Translations under genes and position numbers: made by a program
Shown: one piece after another, positions 1 through 50,911 of the stretch
Numbering within the stretch: the stretch's first letter is position 1
Layout: the number at the start of each line of letters is the position of its first letter
The notes under the pieces: model-generated
What the model was told of the DNA's origin: nothing
Seen by the model: the letters and a program-made list of their open reading frames with translations, nothing else
Databases searched by the model: none
DNA from: Aquificota bacterium
GTDB lineage: Bacteria; Aquificota; Aquificia; Aquificales; Aquificaceae
Assembly: GCA_013153495.1 (NCBI GenBank)
Contig: JAADEH010000012.1
Span: 1-64,000, forward strand
DNA: 64,000 nucleotides
Direction of reading: 5' to 3'

Positions 1-91
1 AAGGAGCCGTGCGGACCCTTGCGTTCCGCTCTTACTTACTCAAGAATTTAACACATTCTCCCGAAATTTTCTATATGATTTTCCCCATAAA
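1..91 (-). repeat. Inverted copy of the CRISPR leader segment
   Basis: Read on the minus strand, this 91-bp stretch matches 49213-49303 at 89 of 91 positions. The mismatches are C for T in the TTTCGGGAG part and T for C in GAGTAAG. The match stops at position 92 and is cut by the window edge at position 1, so it may run further left. At 49213 the same sequence is the start of the leader of a CRISPR array. The inference is that a second array lies left of position 1 on the minus strand. Confidence 0.85.
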
Positions 92-105
92 TTATGATTT
101 TAAAG

Positions 106-1206
106 TCATAAATTGCCCGTCCCTTTCAAAACCACAATCACAACATCCGGGGGAGATAGAAGCCTCATAGGGGGTCCACCTGTTCCCACTCCTTTGCTAA
201 CAATTATGAACTTTCCCGGGACAAGCTCCTTTATCCCCCTGTCGGTTTCATATAGAACCCTCAAAAGGGTATATCCCACAAAGAAGAGCACTCCGCCGTG
301 GGTGTGTCCCGCCAGGACGAGGTCAATGTAAGGCAGGGCTTTTTCGTTTATTTGGGGTCTGTGTTTTATCACTATGGTGTAAAGGGGGCTTGGGTTATTC
401 AAAACCTGTAGCTCGTCGGTAATTACTTTATACCCGAGCCTTTCACCCGCAGGGTCGTCTAAACCTACAATTCTTAAAAGACCGCCTACGGCGGTGGTTT
501 CTCCTCTTAAAACCCTAAAACCTGCTTCCTCCAAAAACTTTTGCGATTGCTCTGCTCCCACATAGAACTCATGGTTTCCCAAAACAGCGAACTTTCCCAA
601 AGGTGGTTCTATCTGAGAGAGCATGTGTGCCAAGTGCTTTAGCCTTTCCATGTTCCCATCCACCATGTCCCCCGTGGCTATCACGATGTCAGGCTTCTCC
701 TTTTCGTAAACTTCGAGCACCTTTCTAACCTTGTCCTCCCTCATCACCGGTCCCAAGTGCAGGTCCGAAATGTGAAGTATCTTTAGACTCGTTCCTGCGG
801 GGAGCTTGGGGGTCTCTATGGTGTATCTTTCCACTTTCAGAAAGTGGGTCTCCGCATGGCTGTATGCGCTCAGAAAAAGAGCAACCACAAGGCTTATGAA
901 AAATGCCTGCCTTTTGGAGGGTGAGTGAAACCTGCGGTATAGGTCTAAAACAAAGCTGGCAAGCACGAAGTAAAAGAGAAAACCCATCCAGAGCAGTCCC
1001 GAAAGAGCTACCCAGTAGGTGGCTTCCTCAAAGCCTCTGCGGTCTAAGAACCTCCACAGGGCAGGTGAGAAGGTGGTGAGGGTAAATAAAAGCACGAGGG
1101 CTAATCTGCTGAGTTTGGACAGGTTAAAGACGAACACGACCTTCCGGTATGCATAGTAGTGCATAAGGGAGTATATTGAGAAGAATACAACCGCAAAGAG
1201 GCTCAT
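106..1206 (-). CDS. Membrane-anchored metallophosphoesterase (YkuE/YaeI-like)
   Basis: A 366-residue protein with about four hydrophobic segments in residues 1-118, followed by a calcineurin-like phosphoesterase domain. The metal-binding motifs are all visible: DLH at 148-150, GDMVDG from 179, GNHE at 210-213, a histidine in KHRP near 282, and GHTHGG at 300-305. Proteins with this layout are two-metal phosphohydrolases, and some relatives (LpxH/YaeI-like) act on membrane lipids. The domain is probably on one face of the inner membrane. The substrate cannot be told from sequence. The start ATG directly follows the ilvD stop codon, so the two are probably co-transcribed. Confidence 0.85.
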   Translation of the reverse strand: MSLFAVVFFSIYSLMHYYAYRKVVFVFNLSKLSRLALVLLFTLTTFSPALWRFLDRRGFEEATYWVALSGLLWMGFLFYFVLASFVLDLYRRFHSPSKRQAFFISLVVALFLSAYSHAETHFLKVERYTIETPKLPAGTSLKILHISDLHLGPVMREDKVRKVLEVYEKEKPDIVIATGDMVDGNMERLKHLAHMLSQIEPPLGKFAVLGNHEFYVGAEQSQKFLEEAGFRVLRGETTAVGGLLRIVGLDDPAGERLGYKVITDELQVLNNPSPLYTIVIKHRPQINEKALPYIDLVLAGHTHGGVLFFVGYTLLRVLYETDRGIKELVPGKFIIVSKGVGTGGPPMRLLSPPDVVIVVLKGTGNL

Positions 1207-16012: not shown

Positions 16013-16353
16013 TCCTCCTCCTCCGTAAAGGCACTCAGGACAGTCTCTATTATGGAGATTATTACGGAAATTATGTTTGCTGCGAGAGCACCCTGAGCCA
16101 AACCCACCGCCTCGTGAGAGTCTCCCATAAAGAAGATAAAGAGAGCAGGTATAAGGTGCAGGTCCGCCACAAGGCTCGAAGCGAGCATCTCCGTAGAGAG
16201 AACTCTCCCCTCCCCTATTTTGAGTATCGTTGCAGCGAGATTTGCGGCAACCGTTATAACCAGCTCGTAGGGGTTGGGGCTGACTATGAAACTTATGTTG
16301 GTCGTAAGAGCCATCAATATAAAGAAGTCCGTTATTATCTTCTTGTATCTCAT
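16009..16353 (-). CDS. Small conserved membrane protein
   Basis: A 114-residue protein with three or four hydrophobic segments (IITDFFILMALTTNISFIV, ELVITVAANLAATIL, LIPALFIFFMG, ANIISVIISIIETVL) and an acidic tail. Its start overlaps the end of the potassium-channel gene by 4 bases, so it is probably made with the channel. From memory it resembles a family listed as DUF6394, which I cannot verify here. A role as partner of the channel is an inference from the coupling. Confidence 0.7.
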   Translation of the reverse strand: MRYKKIITDFFILMALTTNISFIVSPNPYELVITVAANLAATILKIGEGRVLSTEMLASSLVADLHLIPALFIFFMGDSHEAVGLAQGALAANIISVIISIIETVLSAFTEEED

Positions 16354-17495
16354 GCTTTATCCTCCAGGACCTTGTGAGCCTCCTCCAAGAGAACTTTCTG
16401 CGCCCTTCGCAGGTTTTTGGGTCTTCCGAATATTATCAGCGTATCCCCTTCCTCTATGGTGGTCTCACCGGAGATGGTGATGTCAAGCTCCCCGTCGGGC
16501 TTCCTTATGGCTATTATGGTTACCTTGAGACTCCGTCTGAGGTCTATCTCTTTCAGTTTCTTCCCCACGAGAGGTGAACCCGGCTCTACCCTCAGCTCGA
16601 GTATGTCTATGTCCGTCTCTTCACCGAAGGCTATCCTGTCGAAAAGGTCCGATATAAAGGCTGAACCGGTGTGGAATATGTAGGCAGCAAGTCTTGTAGC
16701 CAAGAGCTTGTTGGGAACGAACGCCTTATTTGCTCCCAGCTCTTCCATCTTCTCCGCCGTTCCGTCGGTGGAAGCGAAGGAGTATATGTAAAACTCCTCC
16801 TTAGAAGGTCTTAGCAATCTTGCGGTAACTATAACCGCTATGTTCCTCGCATCGTCTCTGAGGTTAACCACCATGCCCTTCGCCCGCTTTATCCCTGCGG
16901 ACAGCAGAACTGACCTCTTGTAAGGTTCCTCGGTAATGAAATACTTTATGTTGTGCTCCTGAAGGTATTTTAGGGCTTCGGGGTTGTCCTCTATCACCAC
17001 GAACTCTATTTTTCTCTTCTTTAGCGTTTGAGCGAGCCATGCGGAAGTTTTATCGTATCCGCAGACTATAAAGTGTCCCTCAAGTTCCTCTATTTCTCTC
17101 AGCATTCTTATAGCCCTGTAGAGGGTAATTATATCTTCCTTAAAGAATATCCTTACTATCACCGTTACAGAGGTGGTGAACACCCCTATTCCCAAGAGCG
17201 ACAGAAAGGAAGTAAATATCCTCCCGTAAACCGTATCGCTTCCGGCAACAACCTCCCCGTATCCTATGGTTCCGATGGTAATTATGGTCATGTAAAAGGA
17301 GTTTATAAAGTCCCCTCCCGAGAGTAGCATGTAGCCTAAAGTTCCCACCGTCAGGGCTGTGTGAAGCATCAGGAGTGGAATTCTCAACTCCCGCAGAGCC
17401 TCTATAAAACGCCTCTGATAAATTTCTATCAGCTTTGGCTCTCTCTTTTTGCGAAGCCTTCTTTTGATTTTCCTCTTCAGCTTTAAACGAGGCAT
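16350..17495 (-). CDS. Potassium channel with RCK (TrkA-N/C) domains
   Basis: A 381-residue protein with a basic N-terminal tail, two membrane helices and a pore loop with the K+ selectivity filter TIGYG (76-80). A cytoplasmic TrkA-N nucleotide-binding fold follows (HFIVCGYDKTSAWLAQTLKK, with the acidic residue in FVVIEDNP), then a TrkA-C domain. This is the layout of MthK/Kch-like ligand-gated K+ channels. It shares a 4-base overlap with the small membrane protein downstream. Confidence 0.92.
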   Translation of the reverse strand: MPRLKLKRKIKRRLRKKREPKLIEIYQRRFIEALRELRIPLLMLHTALTVGTLGYMLLSGGDFINSFYMTIITIGTIGYGEVVAGSDTVYGRIFTSFLSLLGIGVFTTSVTVIVRIFFKEDIITLYRAIRMLREIEELEGHFIVCGYDKTSAWLAQTLKKRKIEFVVIEDNPEALKYLQEHNIKYFITEEPYKRSVLLSAGIKRAKGMVVNLRDDARNIAVIVTARLLRPSKEEFYIYSFASTDGTAEKMEELGANKAFVPNKLLATRLAAYIFHTGSAFISDLFDRIAFGEETDIDILELRVEPGSPLVGKKLKEIDLRRSLKVTIIAIRKPDGELDITISGETTIEEGDTLIIFGRPKNLRRAQKVLLEEAHKVLEDKA

Positions 17496-17773: not shown

Positions 17774-19786
17774 TTGGAGGAGATAAGAAGCGTGCAAAAG
17801 TATCTCAAAACCATCTTTCAGGACATAAGAAAAGAACTTGAGGAAAACGAGTTCATACGAGCGCTCGTAGGTTCTCAGGAAAACCTAACCAACCTCATGG
17901 AAGGTCAGGAAAAGCTAATAGCTGAGTATCTTGAGCATTGGCAGAGCGGAGCGGTTGACTTTTCCAAACGCTTTGAAGAGCTTTACAGTAAAACGGACGT
18001 TCCTTACGCAGTCATAGCCTGGAACATAGACCGCATAAAGAGCAAGATAATGGAAAAGCTCATCGACGAGCAATACTCCCAAGAGTTCCTCTTGAAGATG
18101 AAAGCCTACCTCGAGGACCTCGTTAACCAGATAGCCAAGATATACCTCAAGAAAGAGAGCAAAACCCTGAGAAACTTCAAAAAATCCCCCTTTTCCGAAA
18201 AGCTCCTATACGTAACCCACAGGGATTGGCTCACGAGGATTGCTGATGCCATAGAGAAAGACGACTTTTCTCAATTTCCCGTGATGTCCGCCAGCGAGTG
18301 TGAGTTCTCCCATGTGCTTGAATACCCCGAGTCCCTATTTGTGTGCATGGATGCCAACATGTGCACCTACGTTCACAACCTCCACGCTTTAATACACGAC
18401 ACCGCCAACACCTTCTATACCTTCTACACTAAGGGAGCTTACTATCAGGCTTACAGGGTCTTTAAGGACATGACCGAGCTGATAGCAAAACTGCTAAAAA
18501 CCATTTCCGAGCTATACTTCCTCGCCTATTCGGACCCGGAGTCAAACTTTTTCAAGCTGGTTCACCTGCTTTCCTCGAGGGGAGATTACAAATACGTATC
18601 CATGATAGACGTGGTAGGACTTAAGAACATAAACAGAACCTACGGGGACAAGGCTGGAGACCAGGTGGTCAGGGAAGTGGAAAAGCGACTTATGGAGACT
18701 TTCGGTAAGGACATAGAAAGAACCCTGATAATAAAGGGTTCCACTGCGGACTTTTTCATGCTCAACATGGACTTTTCCGAGGAGGAGATAAGAGAGCGTA
18801 TGCTGGAGGTTTCCAAAAACCTTCACTTTGAGGTGCAGATAAACGGAAAGAAGATACCCATATCGGTTACCGTATCTACGGTGGAGATAGAACCCTACAT
18901 GGAACTTGTGGAGGCTGACCTCAGAGACATACTCTACTTCCTGAAGGAGGAAGCCAAAAAGTCCGTAGAGCACACCAGCATTTCCATAGGAAAGGAGAGA
19001 CGGCAGGAGATACTCAACTGGATTAACGAGAAGTATAGAAATGTCGAGAAGGTAAAGAGCAGGATAGAGAGGGGAGAGATAGAGCTTATGTTTCACCCCA
19101 TAGTGGAAACTTTCAACACAAACCGGGTTGTAGGTGCGGAGGTCCTGGTTCGAATAAAGGACGGAGAGAAGCTCATACCCGCAGGGGTGTTCATAGACCT
19201 CATATACGAGCTAAACCTCGTTGAAGAGCTTGACAAGAAGGTTCTTGACAAACTGCTCGAATACTCCGACCTGCTGAGGGGTGTAATTAACTCCCTGTTT
19301 ATAAACGTTAGCTCAAGGTCTCTGATGTCGGACAGCTATCTGAAGAAGCTCTGCGACTTTATAAGGGAGATGAAAGACTTCAACATAACGGTGGAGCTTA
19401 CGGAACAGCAGTTGATAGAGAACTTCGAAGCGGTGGTAAAGATAGCGGAAAACAGCCACGTTGCGGTTGCGGTGGACGACTTCGGGACGGGATACTCTTC
19501 CCTCAAGGTCGTGGCTGACCTCGTCGAGAAAAACCTGCTCAAGTTCCTAAAGATTGACGGTTCCCTTATAAGGGACATTCTCAAGTCCCATGCCATATGG
19601 AAGGTCGTTGACATAATCTCCGTCCTGAGCAAGAGACTTGAAACCAAAACCGTAGCGGAGTTCATAGAAAATCCGGAGGAGCTTACGGTCGTTAGGTCTA
19701 TGGGTATAGATTACTGTCAGGGATACTACATAGCAAAACCTATGACCATTACGGAGTTGATAACTTGGGTAAAGTCCTTAGGATAG
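17774..19786 (+). CDS. c-di-GMP phosphodiesterase with CZB-like zinc sensor and degenerate GGDEF
   Basis: A 670-residue soluble protein starting at TTG, supported by GGAGG 8 bases upstream. Residues 1-140 are helical. Residues 145-245 fit a CZB zinc-binding domain: H149, C176, H204 and H208, with spacings near those of E. coli DgcZ. Residues 265-420 are a GGDEF fold whose motif reads GSTADFF, so it is degenerate. The C-terminal EAL domain keeps GAEVLVR, ELTEQQ, DDFGTGYSS, LKIDGS and CQGYYIAKP and is probably active. It would break down cyclic di-GMP in response to zinc or a related signal. It overlaps the DUF167 gene by 22 bases. Confidence 0.85.
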   Translation: MEEIRSVQKYLKTIFQDIRKELEENEFIRALVGSQENLTNLMEGQEKLIAEYLEHWQSGAVDFSKRFEELYSKTDVPYAVIAWNIDRIKSKIMEKLIDEQYSQEFLLKMKAYLEDLVNQIAKIYLKKESKTLRNFKKSPFSEKLLYVTHRDWLTRIADAIEKDDFSQFPVMSASECEFSHVLEYPESLFVCMDANMCTYVHNLHALIHDTANTFYTFYTKGAYYQAYRVFKDMTELIAKLLKTISELYFLAYSDPESNFFKLVHLLSSRGDYKYVSMIDVVGLKNINRTYGDKAGDQVVREVEKRLMETFGKDIERTLIIKGSTADFFMLNMDFSEEEIRERMLEVSKNLHFEVQINGKKIPISVTVSTVEIEPYMELVEADLRDILYFLKEEAKKSVEHTSISIGKERRQEILNWINEKYRNVEKVKSRIERGEIELMFHPIVETFNTNRVVGAEVLVRIKDGEKLIPAGVFIDLIYELNLVEELDKKVLDKLLEYSDLLRGVINSLFINVSSRSLMSDSYLKKLCDFIREMKDFNITVELTEQQLIENFEAVVKIAENSHVAVAVDDFGTGYSSLKVVADLVEKNLLKFLKIDGSLIRDILKSHAIWKVVDIISVLSKRLETKTVAEFIENPEELTVVRSMGIDYCQGYYIAKPMTITELITWVKSLG

Positions 19787-49212: not shown

Positions 49213-49453
49213 TTTATGGGGAAAATCATATAGAAAATTTTGGGAGAATGTGTTAAATTCTTGAGCAAGTAAGAGCGGAACGCAAGGGTCCGCACGGCTC
49301 CTTGTCAACCGAATAGGGCAATTTAAGGCAAAGCCTTGGGAGAGAAGCTCGAGAAGGAATTTATTGATAATTCTGCAAAATTTTGACAGGTGGGTTAATT
49401 GCGAACAATTCTCACTCCCGAGGCGTTGATTTTCAACAAGATAAAAAGGTGCC
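49213..49453 (+). promoter_or_regulatory. CRISPR leader
   Basis: About 240 bases without an open frame between the ferritin gene and the first repeat. It is AT-rich, and its first 91 bases are repeated in inverted orientation at 1-91. TTGACA at 49383 could be the -35 of the array promoter, though the -10 is weak. A small hairpin AATTG-CGAA-CAATT lies at 49397-49410. The position opposite to the decayed repeats marks it as the leader side. Confidence 0.75.
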
Positions 49454-49844
49454 CTTAAAGGTTATCCCTGAAAATGAGGGATTGCGACTTGTGTATTCAC
49501 CATATATGCAAAACAACCTTTCTCTCTTAAAGGTTATCCCTGAAAATGAGGGATTGCGACAAGCTTATACTTCTTCCTCTCCCAGAAGGGTGTAAAGACC
49601 TTAAAGGTTATCCCTGAAAATGAGGGATTGCGACCTATTGAAAACACAGTTACAACTATATGTAAGTAGAATGCTTAAAGGTTATCCCTGAAAATGAGGG
49701 ATTGCGACCCATCTAATTGCCTTGCCCCGTCGCATAGAGACAGGCTTAAAGGTTATCCCTGAAAATGAGGGATTGCGACCTGGGTATGGAGTAGCCATTT
49801 GCCTCAAGTCTTGAAGGTTATCCCTGTAAACGAGGGATAAAGTT
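49454..49844 (+). CRISPR. CRISPR array, five intact and one decayed repeat
   Basis: Five identical 35-base repeats begin at 49454, 49526, 49600, 49674 and 49745. Each starts CTTAAAGGTTATCCCTG and ends GAGGGATTGCGAC; ATCCCT and AGGGAT form a hairpin, and the last 8 bases (ATTGCGAC) would be the crRNA 5' handle after Cas6 cleavage. Spacers are 37, 39, 39, 36 and 30 bases. A sixth copy at 49810-49844 has a changed middle and end, the usual sign of the leader-distal end. No cas gene is in the window, so the type (I-B or III likely) is inferred only from the repeat. Confidence 0.97.
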
Positions 49845-49938
49845 CCTCTACTCTGCGGGAGTGATTATCTTTACACCTTTAAAGAGGTATGACTTATAAA
49901 CACACCGTAAAAAATCTCAAGCGGAAGGATGAACAAAA

Positions 49939-49973
49939 GTTGAAGGCTATTCCTATAAATGTGGATTTGACTC
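49939..49973 (+). repeat. Relic of a seventh CRISPR repeat
   Basis: A 35-base stretch (begins GTTGAAGGCTATTCCTATA) matches the array repeat at about 24 of 35 positions with no gaps. It lies 94 bases beyond the decayed sixth repeat, a distance too long for one spacer. It suggests the array was once longer and its old end is eroding. The bases between (49845-49938) hold no gene. Confidence 0.55.
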
Positions 49974-50011
49974 CGTTCTTCCCTTAAGGAAGCTTAAAAT
50001 AATCTCTCGGT

Positions 50012-50911
50012 ATGCACTGTCTGATAAATTACATGGAAGTTGAGAAACCTCTATCTTGGGATAACTTGCTCGTTGAGGTAGGTTTCGGACGGGGAGACTT
50101 TACCGTAAGGTTGGCACGGGAAAATCCCGACAGGGTAGTTCTGGGGTTTGAACTTTCGGGAATATCCATAGAGAAGTTGCTTAAAAGAGTAAAGAGAGAA
50201 AACATAAAAAATGTATTTTGCGTGCCTATGGATGCCTTTTGGGGGTTTTACTTCCTTTTGAAAGACTCTTCCGTGGAGAAGATATTCATGAATTATCCCG
50301 ACCCCTGGTTTAAGAAAAAACATCACAAAAGGAGATTGACCTCCGAGAGGAACTTATACCTCTTTGCCAGAAAGCTGAAAGACAAAGGAGAGATAGTCGT
50401 AAGAACGGACCACTATCCCTTTGTAGAATACACGCTACGAGAGTCTGAAAAGGTGCAGGCATTTAAGCATAAACTCAAAGAGTTAGATGTAGAGGAACCT
50501 CTGACTAAATACGAAAGGAAGTGGCTTTCTATGGGAAAGAAGCTCTACGAGCTTAGGTTGATAAAGGTAAAAGAACCGAAACCCACACCTATGCCGAAGG
50601 TAAGGGAGGTAAAGGAAGTGTTTCCCGTAAAAGTTGAGAGTAAAGAGATAAACATCGGAGCTTTGGAAAACAGAGAGGAAAGGCTCGAAGAACAGGTGGT
50701 TTTAAAGACATTCAGGGTCTTTGAGGGGAAAAACTCATACCTCGTAGAGGTCCTTCTATCCGAAGAGGGTTTCGTTCAAAAGTTCTTCGTTGAGCTGAGG
50801 AAGAAGAATGAAAGCTGGATTGTAGATTTGTCCAAGTTCAGTCAGGTTTTGAGGACGGAGAAAATTCAAAGGACTGTGGAGTTTATAGCAAAGGAAGTCC
50901 TTAGACCATAA
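50012..50911 (+). CDS. trmB: tRNA (guanine-N7-)-methyltransferase with C-terminal extension
   Basis: A 299-residue enzyme that methylates G46 of tRNA. The SAM site is VEVGFGRGDFTVRLA (about 21-35), and NYPDPWFKKKHHKRRLT is the family signature. Residues from about 195 on are an extension not present in E. coli TrmB; the Aquifex aeolicus enzyme is known to carry such a C-terminal region. TAAAAT at 49995-50000 lies 11 bases before the ATG, with no ribosome binding site. It faces the next gene with an 11-base overlap. Confidence 0.93.
   Translation: MHCLINYMEVEKPLSWDNLLVEVGFGRGDFTVRLARENPDRVVLGFELSGISIEKLLKRVKRENIKNVFCVPMDAFWGFYFLLKDSSVEKIFMNYPDPWFKKKHHKRRLTSERNLYLFARKLKDKGEIVVRTDHYPFVEYTLRESEKVQAFKHKLKELDVEEPLTKYERKWLSMGKKLYELRLIKVKEPKPTPMPKVREVKEVFPVKVESKEINIGALENREERLEEQVVLKTFRVFEGKNSYLVEVLLSEEGFVQKFFVELRKKNESWIVDLSKFSQVLRTEKIQRTVEFIAKEVLRP

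What the first reader, a model, noticed from the sequence alone, without database searches (positions are those of the whole stretch)
1..91. Inverted 91-bp copy of the CRISPR leader predicts a second array just outside the left edge
Seen: 1-91 read on the minus strand equals 49213-49303 with 2 mismatches in 91. At 49213 this sequence heads the leader of a CRISPR array. Known: arrays served by the same Cas1-Cas2 share leader sequences. Inference: another array with the same 35-base repeat begins left of position 1 on the minus strand. The two leaders face each other across 49 kb, so recombination between them could invert the whole segment.
Basis: partly seen in the sequence, partly recalled or inferred. 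Interest (0 to 1): 0.7.

Follow-up and report, generated by a model that had tools for sequence, protein, structure and literature searches.

The report
Truncated CRISPR leader at contig end
The first 91 bases are the cut-off start of a real CRISPR leader, so a further array almost certainly lies just outside; its length of 91 looks set by the assembly software, and the leader carries an RNA signal that these bacteria also place before their ribosomal RNA genes.

Summary
The match is real: window 1-91 (minus) equals 49213-49303 with 2 mismatches. Window position 1 is also the start of a contig in a 12-contig draft. The 91-base length looks like the assembler's k-mer overlap: contigs C1 and C8 share exactly the same first 91 bases, and two other contig pairs overlap by exactly 91. 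Elsewhere the leader is about 240 bp and ends at a 35-nt repeat. Contig C7 ends in that leader with a one-spacer array and overlaps this start by 85 identical bases, and equally contig C8. The genome has five leader-upstream flanks but four assembled arrays. An array about 150 bp left of position 1 is therefore very likely, either C7's or an unassembled one. The two leaders point away from each other. A 49-kb inversion is possible but unproven; however, all three testable arrays of this family sit on gene-order breakpoints. The unit is a promoter-side leader with a covarying hairpin plus CGGCTCCTTGNCAANNGAATAGG, a boxB/boxA-like element. Relatives have it before CRISPR arrays and before 16S rRNA, which suggests Nus antitermination of CRISPR transcripts, a known kind of mechanism.

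The parts
1..91 (-). Truncated 5' part of a CRISPR leader, cut by the contig start; the array side lies to the left
   Evidence: 98% identical to 49213-49303; contig start and 91-nt shared end with C8; 85-nt exact overlap with the end of C7
11..29 (-). Hairpin GCGGA-ACGCAAGGG-TCCGC (boxB-like)
   Evidence: Stem conserved by covariation at 36 of 37 sites
1..9 (-). First 9 nt (CGGCTCCTT) of the boxA-like element, cut by the contig end
   Evidence: Alignment A1; the full element is seen at 49295-49317
106..1206 (-). Metallophosphoesterase gene whose stop codon is about 14 bp from the leader; in nine relatives it adjoins the homolog of 16350-17495 or 17774-19786 instead
49213..49453 (+). Full-length CRISPR leader of the array inside the window
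   Evidence: 94-96% identical to the other full leaders; alignments
49275..49293 (+). boxB-like hairpin
49295..49317 (+). boxA-like element CGGCTCCTTGTCAACCGAATAGG
   Evidence: the same element lies 58-85 nt before 16S rRNA in the own genome and in relatives
49454..49779 (+). CRISPR array, five identical 35-nt repeats (CTTAAAGGTTATCCCTGAAAATGAGGGATTGCGAC) and four spacers
49810..49866 (+). Degenerate terminal repeat and a trailer shared with the C2 array (58 nt aligned, 88%)
49940..49974 (+). Second degenerate repeat downstream, weakly like the last repeat of the C7 array

Best explanation
Window 1-91 is the upstream part of one of five copies of a roughly 240-bp leader that heads CRISPR arrays with the same 35-nt repeat type, all presumably served by the Cas1, Cas2 and Cas6 locus next to the C2 copy. 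The contig starts here because the leaders are identical over at least an assembly k-mer. The missing remainder (rest of the leader, then the array, first repeat about 151-186 bp to the left) is either the one-spacer array at the end of contig C7 or a short array that was never assembled. Functionally the leader most likely starts a CRISPR transcript and loads a Nus antitermination complex through the hairpin plus boxA-like element, as in the rRNA operons of the same bacteria, so that RNA polymerase crosses the untranslated array. Shown: copy, contig end, overlap, copy count, element shared with rRNA, covarying hairpin, nusB gene. Inferred: the array beyond position 1 (about 0.93), promoter activity, Nus binding (antitermination role about 0.75). 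The confidence given is for the first part, a truncated CRISPR leader with an array beyond the contig end.
For: Match and copies. Contig-end logic: C1 and C8 share exactly 91 nt and then diverge; the C2/C6 and C5/C10 ends overlap by exactly 91; the C7 end overlaps both C1 and C8 starts by 85 nt. Five upstream flanks (C1:49.2k, C2, C5, C1 start, C8 start) against four assembled arrays. In the ...GGGATTGCGAC repeat family the repeat core starts 159-160 nt after the element in the relatives checked, and at 159 in this window. All 26 distinct non-rRNA sites with enough sequence downstream lead into at least one CRISPR repeat; three more are cut by contig ends. Element in rRNA leaders, 16S 58-85 nt downstream, and once in a 16S-23S spacer. 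Stem of at least 5 bp at 36 of 37 sites against a mean of 18 and a maximum of 26 in 300 swaps of 3' arms. Cas1, two Cas2 and Cas6 next to the C2 leader. NusB encoded and close to NusB chains of solved structures.
Against: The sequence left of position 1 is not held; no read, finished chromosome or second assembly shows the junction. Which of C1 or C8 joins C7 is undecided, so one of the two arrays is inferred only from the count. C7 overlaps by 85 nt, not 91, unexplained. A simple consensus scan found no sigma-70 promoter on the plus strand of this leader, and single-sequence folding of the element is no better than shuffles. No transcription or binding data.
Confidence: 0.88

Rival explanations
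1. The leader at position 1 is an orphan: a leader remnant without any array.
For: The C7 array is nearly empty (one spacer, degenerate second repeat), so arrays of this family do decay.
Against: All four full copies in the genome are followed by a repeat, and so are all 26 readable non-rRNA sites of the core element in the own genome and relatives.
Confidence: 0.05
2. The two contig starts (C1 and C8) are alternative arrangements of one locus in a mixed population, produced by recombination between leaders, so that only four arrays exist and C7 joins both.
For: C7 overlaps C1 and C8 equally well; arrays of this family lie on rearrangement breakpoints.
Against: Reciprocal recombination keeps the number of flanks and arrays equal, so a fifth array end would still be needed; no second set of junctions was seen in the assembly.
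Confidence: 0.05
3. The unit is a dispersed repeat or mobile element unrelated to CRISPR function.
For: Copies abut different genes with no shared flank beyond TTTATGGGG.
Against: No copy away from an array or contig end in the genome; the array-side end of every full copy is the first repeat at fixed distance; relatives carry the same architecture with diverged sequence.
Confidence: 0.02

Closest known systems
CRISPR leaders shared by several arrays of one genome (e.g. Aquifex aeolicus VF5, five arrays with one repeat, PMC1892036)
   Same: Several dispersed arrays with one repeat type, including a one-spacer array; here a common leader is shown
   Different: The organism is a relative, not VF5 (FabI clearly diverged from 2p91, PyrB more so from 3d6n; that these entries are from A. 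aeolicus is my own knowledge); array sizes differ
boxA-mediated Nus antitermination of CRISPR arrays (Stringer et al. 2020, eLife e58182, not held; read only as cited in PMC7862264 and PMC12691694)
   Same: rRNA-type boxA in the leader upstream of the array
   Different: Here boxA comes with a covarying hairpin just upstream, in an Aquificaceae genus, and before several repeat types; function untested
rrn antiterminator of Aquificales (NusB structures 2jr0, 3r2c, 3r2d, 4eya)
   Same: Same 23-nt element and hairpin before 16S rRNA in this genome and relatives
   Different: That some of those structures hold boxA RNA is from my own knowledge; not tested here
CRISPR arrays and large inversions in Thermotogales (DeBoy et al. 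2006, known here only by its title as cited in PMC5637354, and from memory)
   Same: CRISPR arrays considered together with chromosome inversions
   Different: Here only three to four loci, in comparison with distant relatives

Membership tests
CRISPR leader | Lies directly upstream of the first repeat of an array | tested here: met
   49213-49453 ends at the first repeat at 49454; same for C2, C5, C7. For 1-91 itself the array side is not held, so this is met for the copies and inferred for 1-91
CRISPR leader | Conserved among arrays with the same repeat in one genome | tested here: met
   94-96% pairwise identity of four full leaders
CRISPR leader | Adaptation genes cas1 and cas2 in the genome, one array beside them | tested here: met
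   Cas1, two Cas2, Cas6 next to the C2 leader
CRISPR leader | Drives transcription and polarised spacer integration | not testable with these tools
   Needs RNA and acquisition assays; no consensus sigma-70 promoter found on the plus strand
rrn-type boxB/boxA antiterminator | Same element in the rRNA leader of the same organism | tested here: met
   C9:39457, 16S begins about 85 nt downstream
rrn-type boxB/boxA antiterminator | Hairpin immediately upstream, kept by compensatory changes | tested here: met
   36 of 37 sites, 300 arm-swap controls reach at most 26
rrn-type boxB/boxA antiterminator | Nus machinery present | tested here: met
   nusB over the curated cut-off; other Nus factors not searched
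rrn-type boxB/boxA antiterminator | Binds NusB/NusE and suppresses termination | not testable with these tools
   No binding or transcription data
Leader-mediated 49-kb inversion | Both orientations of the segment found among relatives or reads | tested here: inconclusive
   The segment is broken into several blocks against G002 and the left junction is not held

The most novel reading that the evidence does not exclude
In this bacterial genus CRISPR leaders of several repeat types carry a complete rRNA-type antitermination module (covarying boxB-like hairpin plus boxA), and the near-identical leaders and arrays of one family have acted as sites of chromosome rearrangement, splitting an ancestral gene pair (trmB and its divergent neighbour) between two arrays.
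Probability: 0.4. Interest if true: 0.5.

Novelty: new member of a known kind. Interest (0 to 1): 0.35.

Why it matters
It shows that a striking repeat at a window edge is a draft-assembly break inside a CRISPR leader, and gives a testable prediction of an array beyond it. The leader's rRNA-like antitermination signal extends a known mechanism to a deep-branching thermophile lineage whose NusB has solved relatives. If leader- or array-mediated inversions are real, CRISPR arrays shape gene order in these small genomes.

Tried and rejected
Scan of named genomes with a degenerate core of the leader: six hits, none from this organism or a near relative, so no finished chromosome to read across the gap. 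Viral contigs with two leader patterns: none. Identity with Aquifex aeolicus VF5: suspected from genome size, rejected by protein divergence. Deciding whether C7 joins C1 or C8 by gene order in relatives: no conserved neighbours of either junction. Single-sequence RNA folding of the element: uninformative; replaced by the arm-swap test. A direct test of the 49-kb inversion: abandoned because the segment is too rearranged against G002. The eLife paper on CRISPR antitermination is not held.

Full report
Observation. Window 1-91 read on the minus strand equals 49213-49303 at 98%. At 49213 the sequence starts a 241-bp leader that ends at the first of five identical 35-nt repeats at 49454. In the genome the sequence occurs six times: four full leaders, each followed by at least one repeat (C1:49.2k, C2:113.9k, C5:93.7k, C7:42.6-42.9k), and two copies cut at contig starts, C1:1-91 and C8:1-94. 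No copy stands away from an array or a contig end.

The window edge is a contig edge. The window is G000:C1:1-64000 of a 12-contig, 1.59-Mb draft. C1 and C8 begin with the same 91 bases and then diverge; the ends of C2/C6 and of C5/C10 overlap by exactly 91 bases. The simplest reading is an assembly-graph overlap of 91, so the length of the unit is technical (inference). The end of C7 overlaps the starts of C1 and C8 by 85 identical bases in the right direction; why not 91 is unexplained. C7's end carries the leader, one full repeat, one spacer and a degenerate repeat. So C7 joins C1 or C8, and the other needs an array that is missing from the assembly: five upstream flanks, four arrays. I could not decide which. 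A similar contig break inside a leader, with an 80-nt overlap, is seen between C8's right end and C11's right end in the second CRISPR family.

Prediction. In relatives the repeat core of the ...GGGATTGCGAC family starts 159-160 nt after the conserved element, and in this window at the same distance. That places the first repeat about 151-186 bp left of position 1 (inference).

What the unit is. The leader contains a hairpin followed by CGGCTCCTTGTCAACCGAATAGG. The element CGGCTCCTTGNCAANNGAATAGG is found in 14 of 17 genomes of the genus, with none for the reversed control pattern. Of 37 distinct sites, seven lie 58-85 nt before 16S rRNA, one lies after a tRNA gene downstream of 16S, read as the 16S-23S spacer, and all 26 others with enough sequence downstream lead into a CRISPR repeat; three are cut by contig ends. 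A stem of at least 5 bp lies directly upstream at 36 of 37 sites, against a mean of 18 and a maximum of 26 in 300 swaps of 3' arms among sites. The exception is the spacer site. Sites were collected by pattern similarity and several come from one genome, so they are not independent. This is the anatomy of an rrn boxB/boxA antiterminator. NusB is encoded and is close to NusB chains of entries 2jr0, 3r2c, 4eya and 3r2d. Papers held describe boxA upstream of CRISPR arrays as known from Stringer et al. 2020; that paper itself is not held. So the mechanism is a known kind, proposed here by sequence only.

Cas genes. Next to the C2 leader are Cas6, Cas1 and two Cas2, with a SAVED/CARF-Lon-like protein carrying a Csx16-like C-terminus and a CRISPR-T-like protein.

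Inversion. The two window leaders point outward, away from each other; they are still inverted repeats, so recombination between them would invert the segment. The 49-kb segment maps to several separate blocks of G002, the single-contig relative, so its inversion cannot be tested. But the array at 49.2k lies exactly between a block matching G002 763.8-776.5 kb and a block matching 757.0-734.0 kb reversed. trmB (50012-50911) and its divergent neighbour are adjacent in G002, G003, G008, G012 and G013; here trmB follows the 49.2k array, while the neighbour lies beside the cas locus of the C2 array. An exchange of tails between these two arrays would give this. The metallophosphoesterase at 106-1206 adjoins other genes in nine relatives, so the leader at position 1 also sits at a changed junction. 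All three testable arrays of this family are at broken adjacencies: C1:49.2k and C2, C5, where one flank gene is only 47% identical to its G002 match. The background is 27 of 215 gene pairs; the chance of three of three is about 0.002, my arithmetic, and the comparison was chosen after seeing the data. Two arrays of the other family on C8 sit between genes that are neighbours in G002. Insertion of arrays at older breakpoints would look the same.

Verdict. Observation confirmed; predicted array very likely; facing orientation wrong; 49-kb inversion open. The item is an assembly-truncated member of a known kind, of moderate interest for its rRNA-like signal.

Noticed in passing
C2:109341-111053 (L184:9341-11053): SAVED/CARF-Lon-like protein (CRISPR-Lon) with a C-terminal STIV B116/Csx16-like domain, next to a CRISPR-T-like protein and Cas6.
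   Followed up: no
C8:69.7-71.1k, C8:91-92k, C8 right end / C11 right end: Second CRISPR family with 30-nt repeat GTTTATTAGGTGCCTATAAGGAGTTGAAAC; its leaders have a TTGACA/TATAAA-like promoter, a 7-bp hairpin with a TACG loop and the same boxA-like element.
   Followed up: partly
window 49810-49974: Two successive degenerate terminal repeats after the array; the first shares its trailer with the C2 array, the second resembles the last repeat of C7: possibly a composite array end.
   Followed up: partly
window 49219-49260 and relatives: Leaders of the ...GGGATTGCGAC family share an ATCATAT ... TTAAATT-like motif instead of a plain sigma-70 promoter; promoter type unknown.
   Followed up: no
C7:42151, C7:356, C5:3086, C5:106179, C6:108: Multicopy family of about 118-aa proteins, several copies near contig ends.
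   Followed up: no
G002:C1:1722426: boxA-like element without hairpin directly after a tRNA gene downstream of 16S.
   Followed up: no
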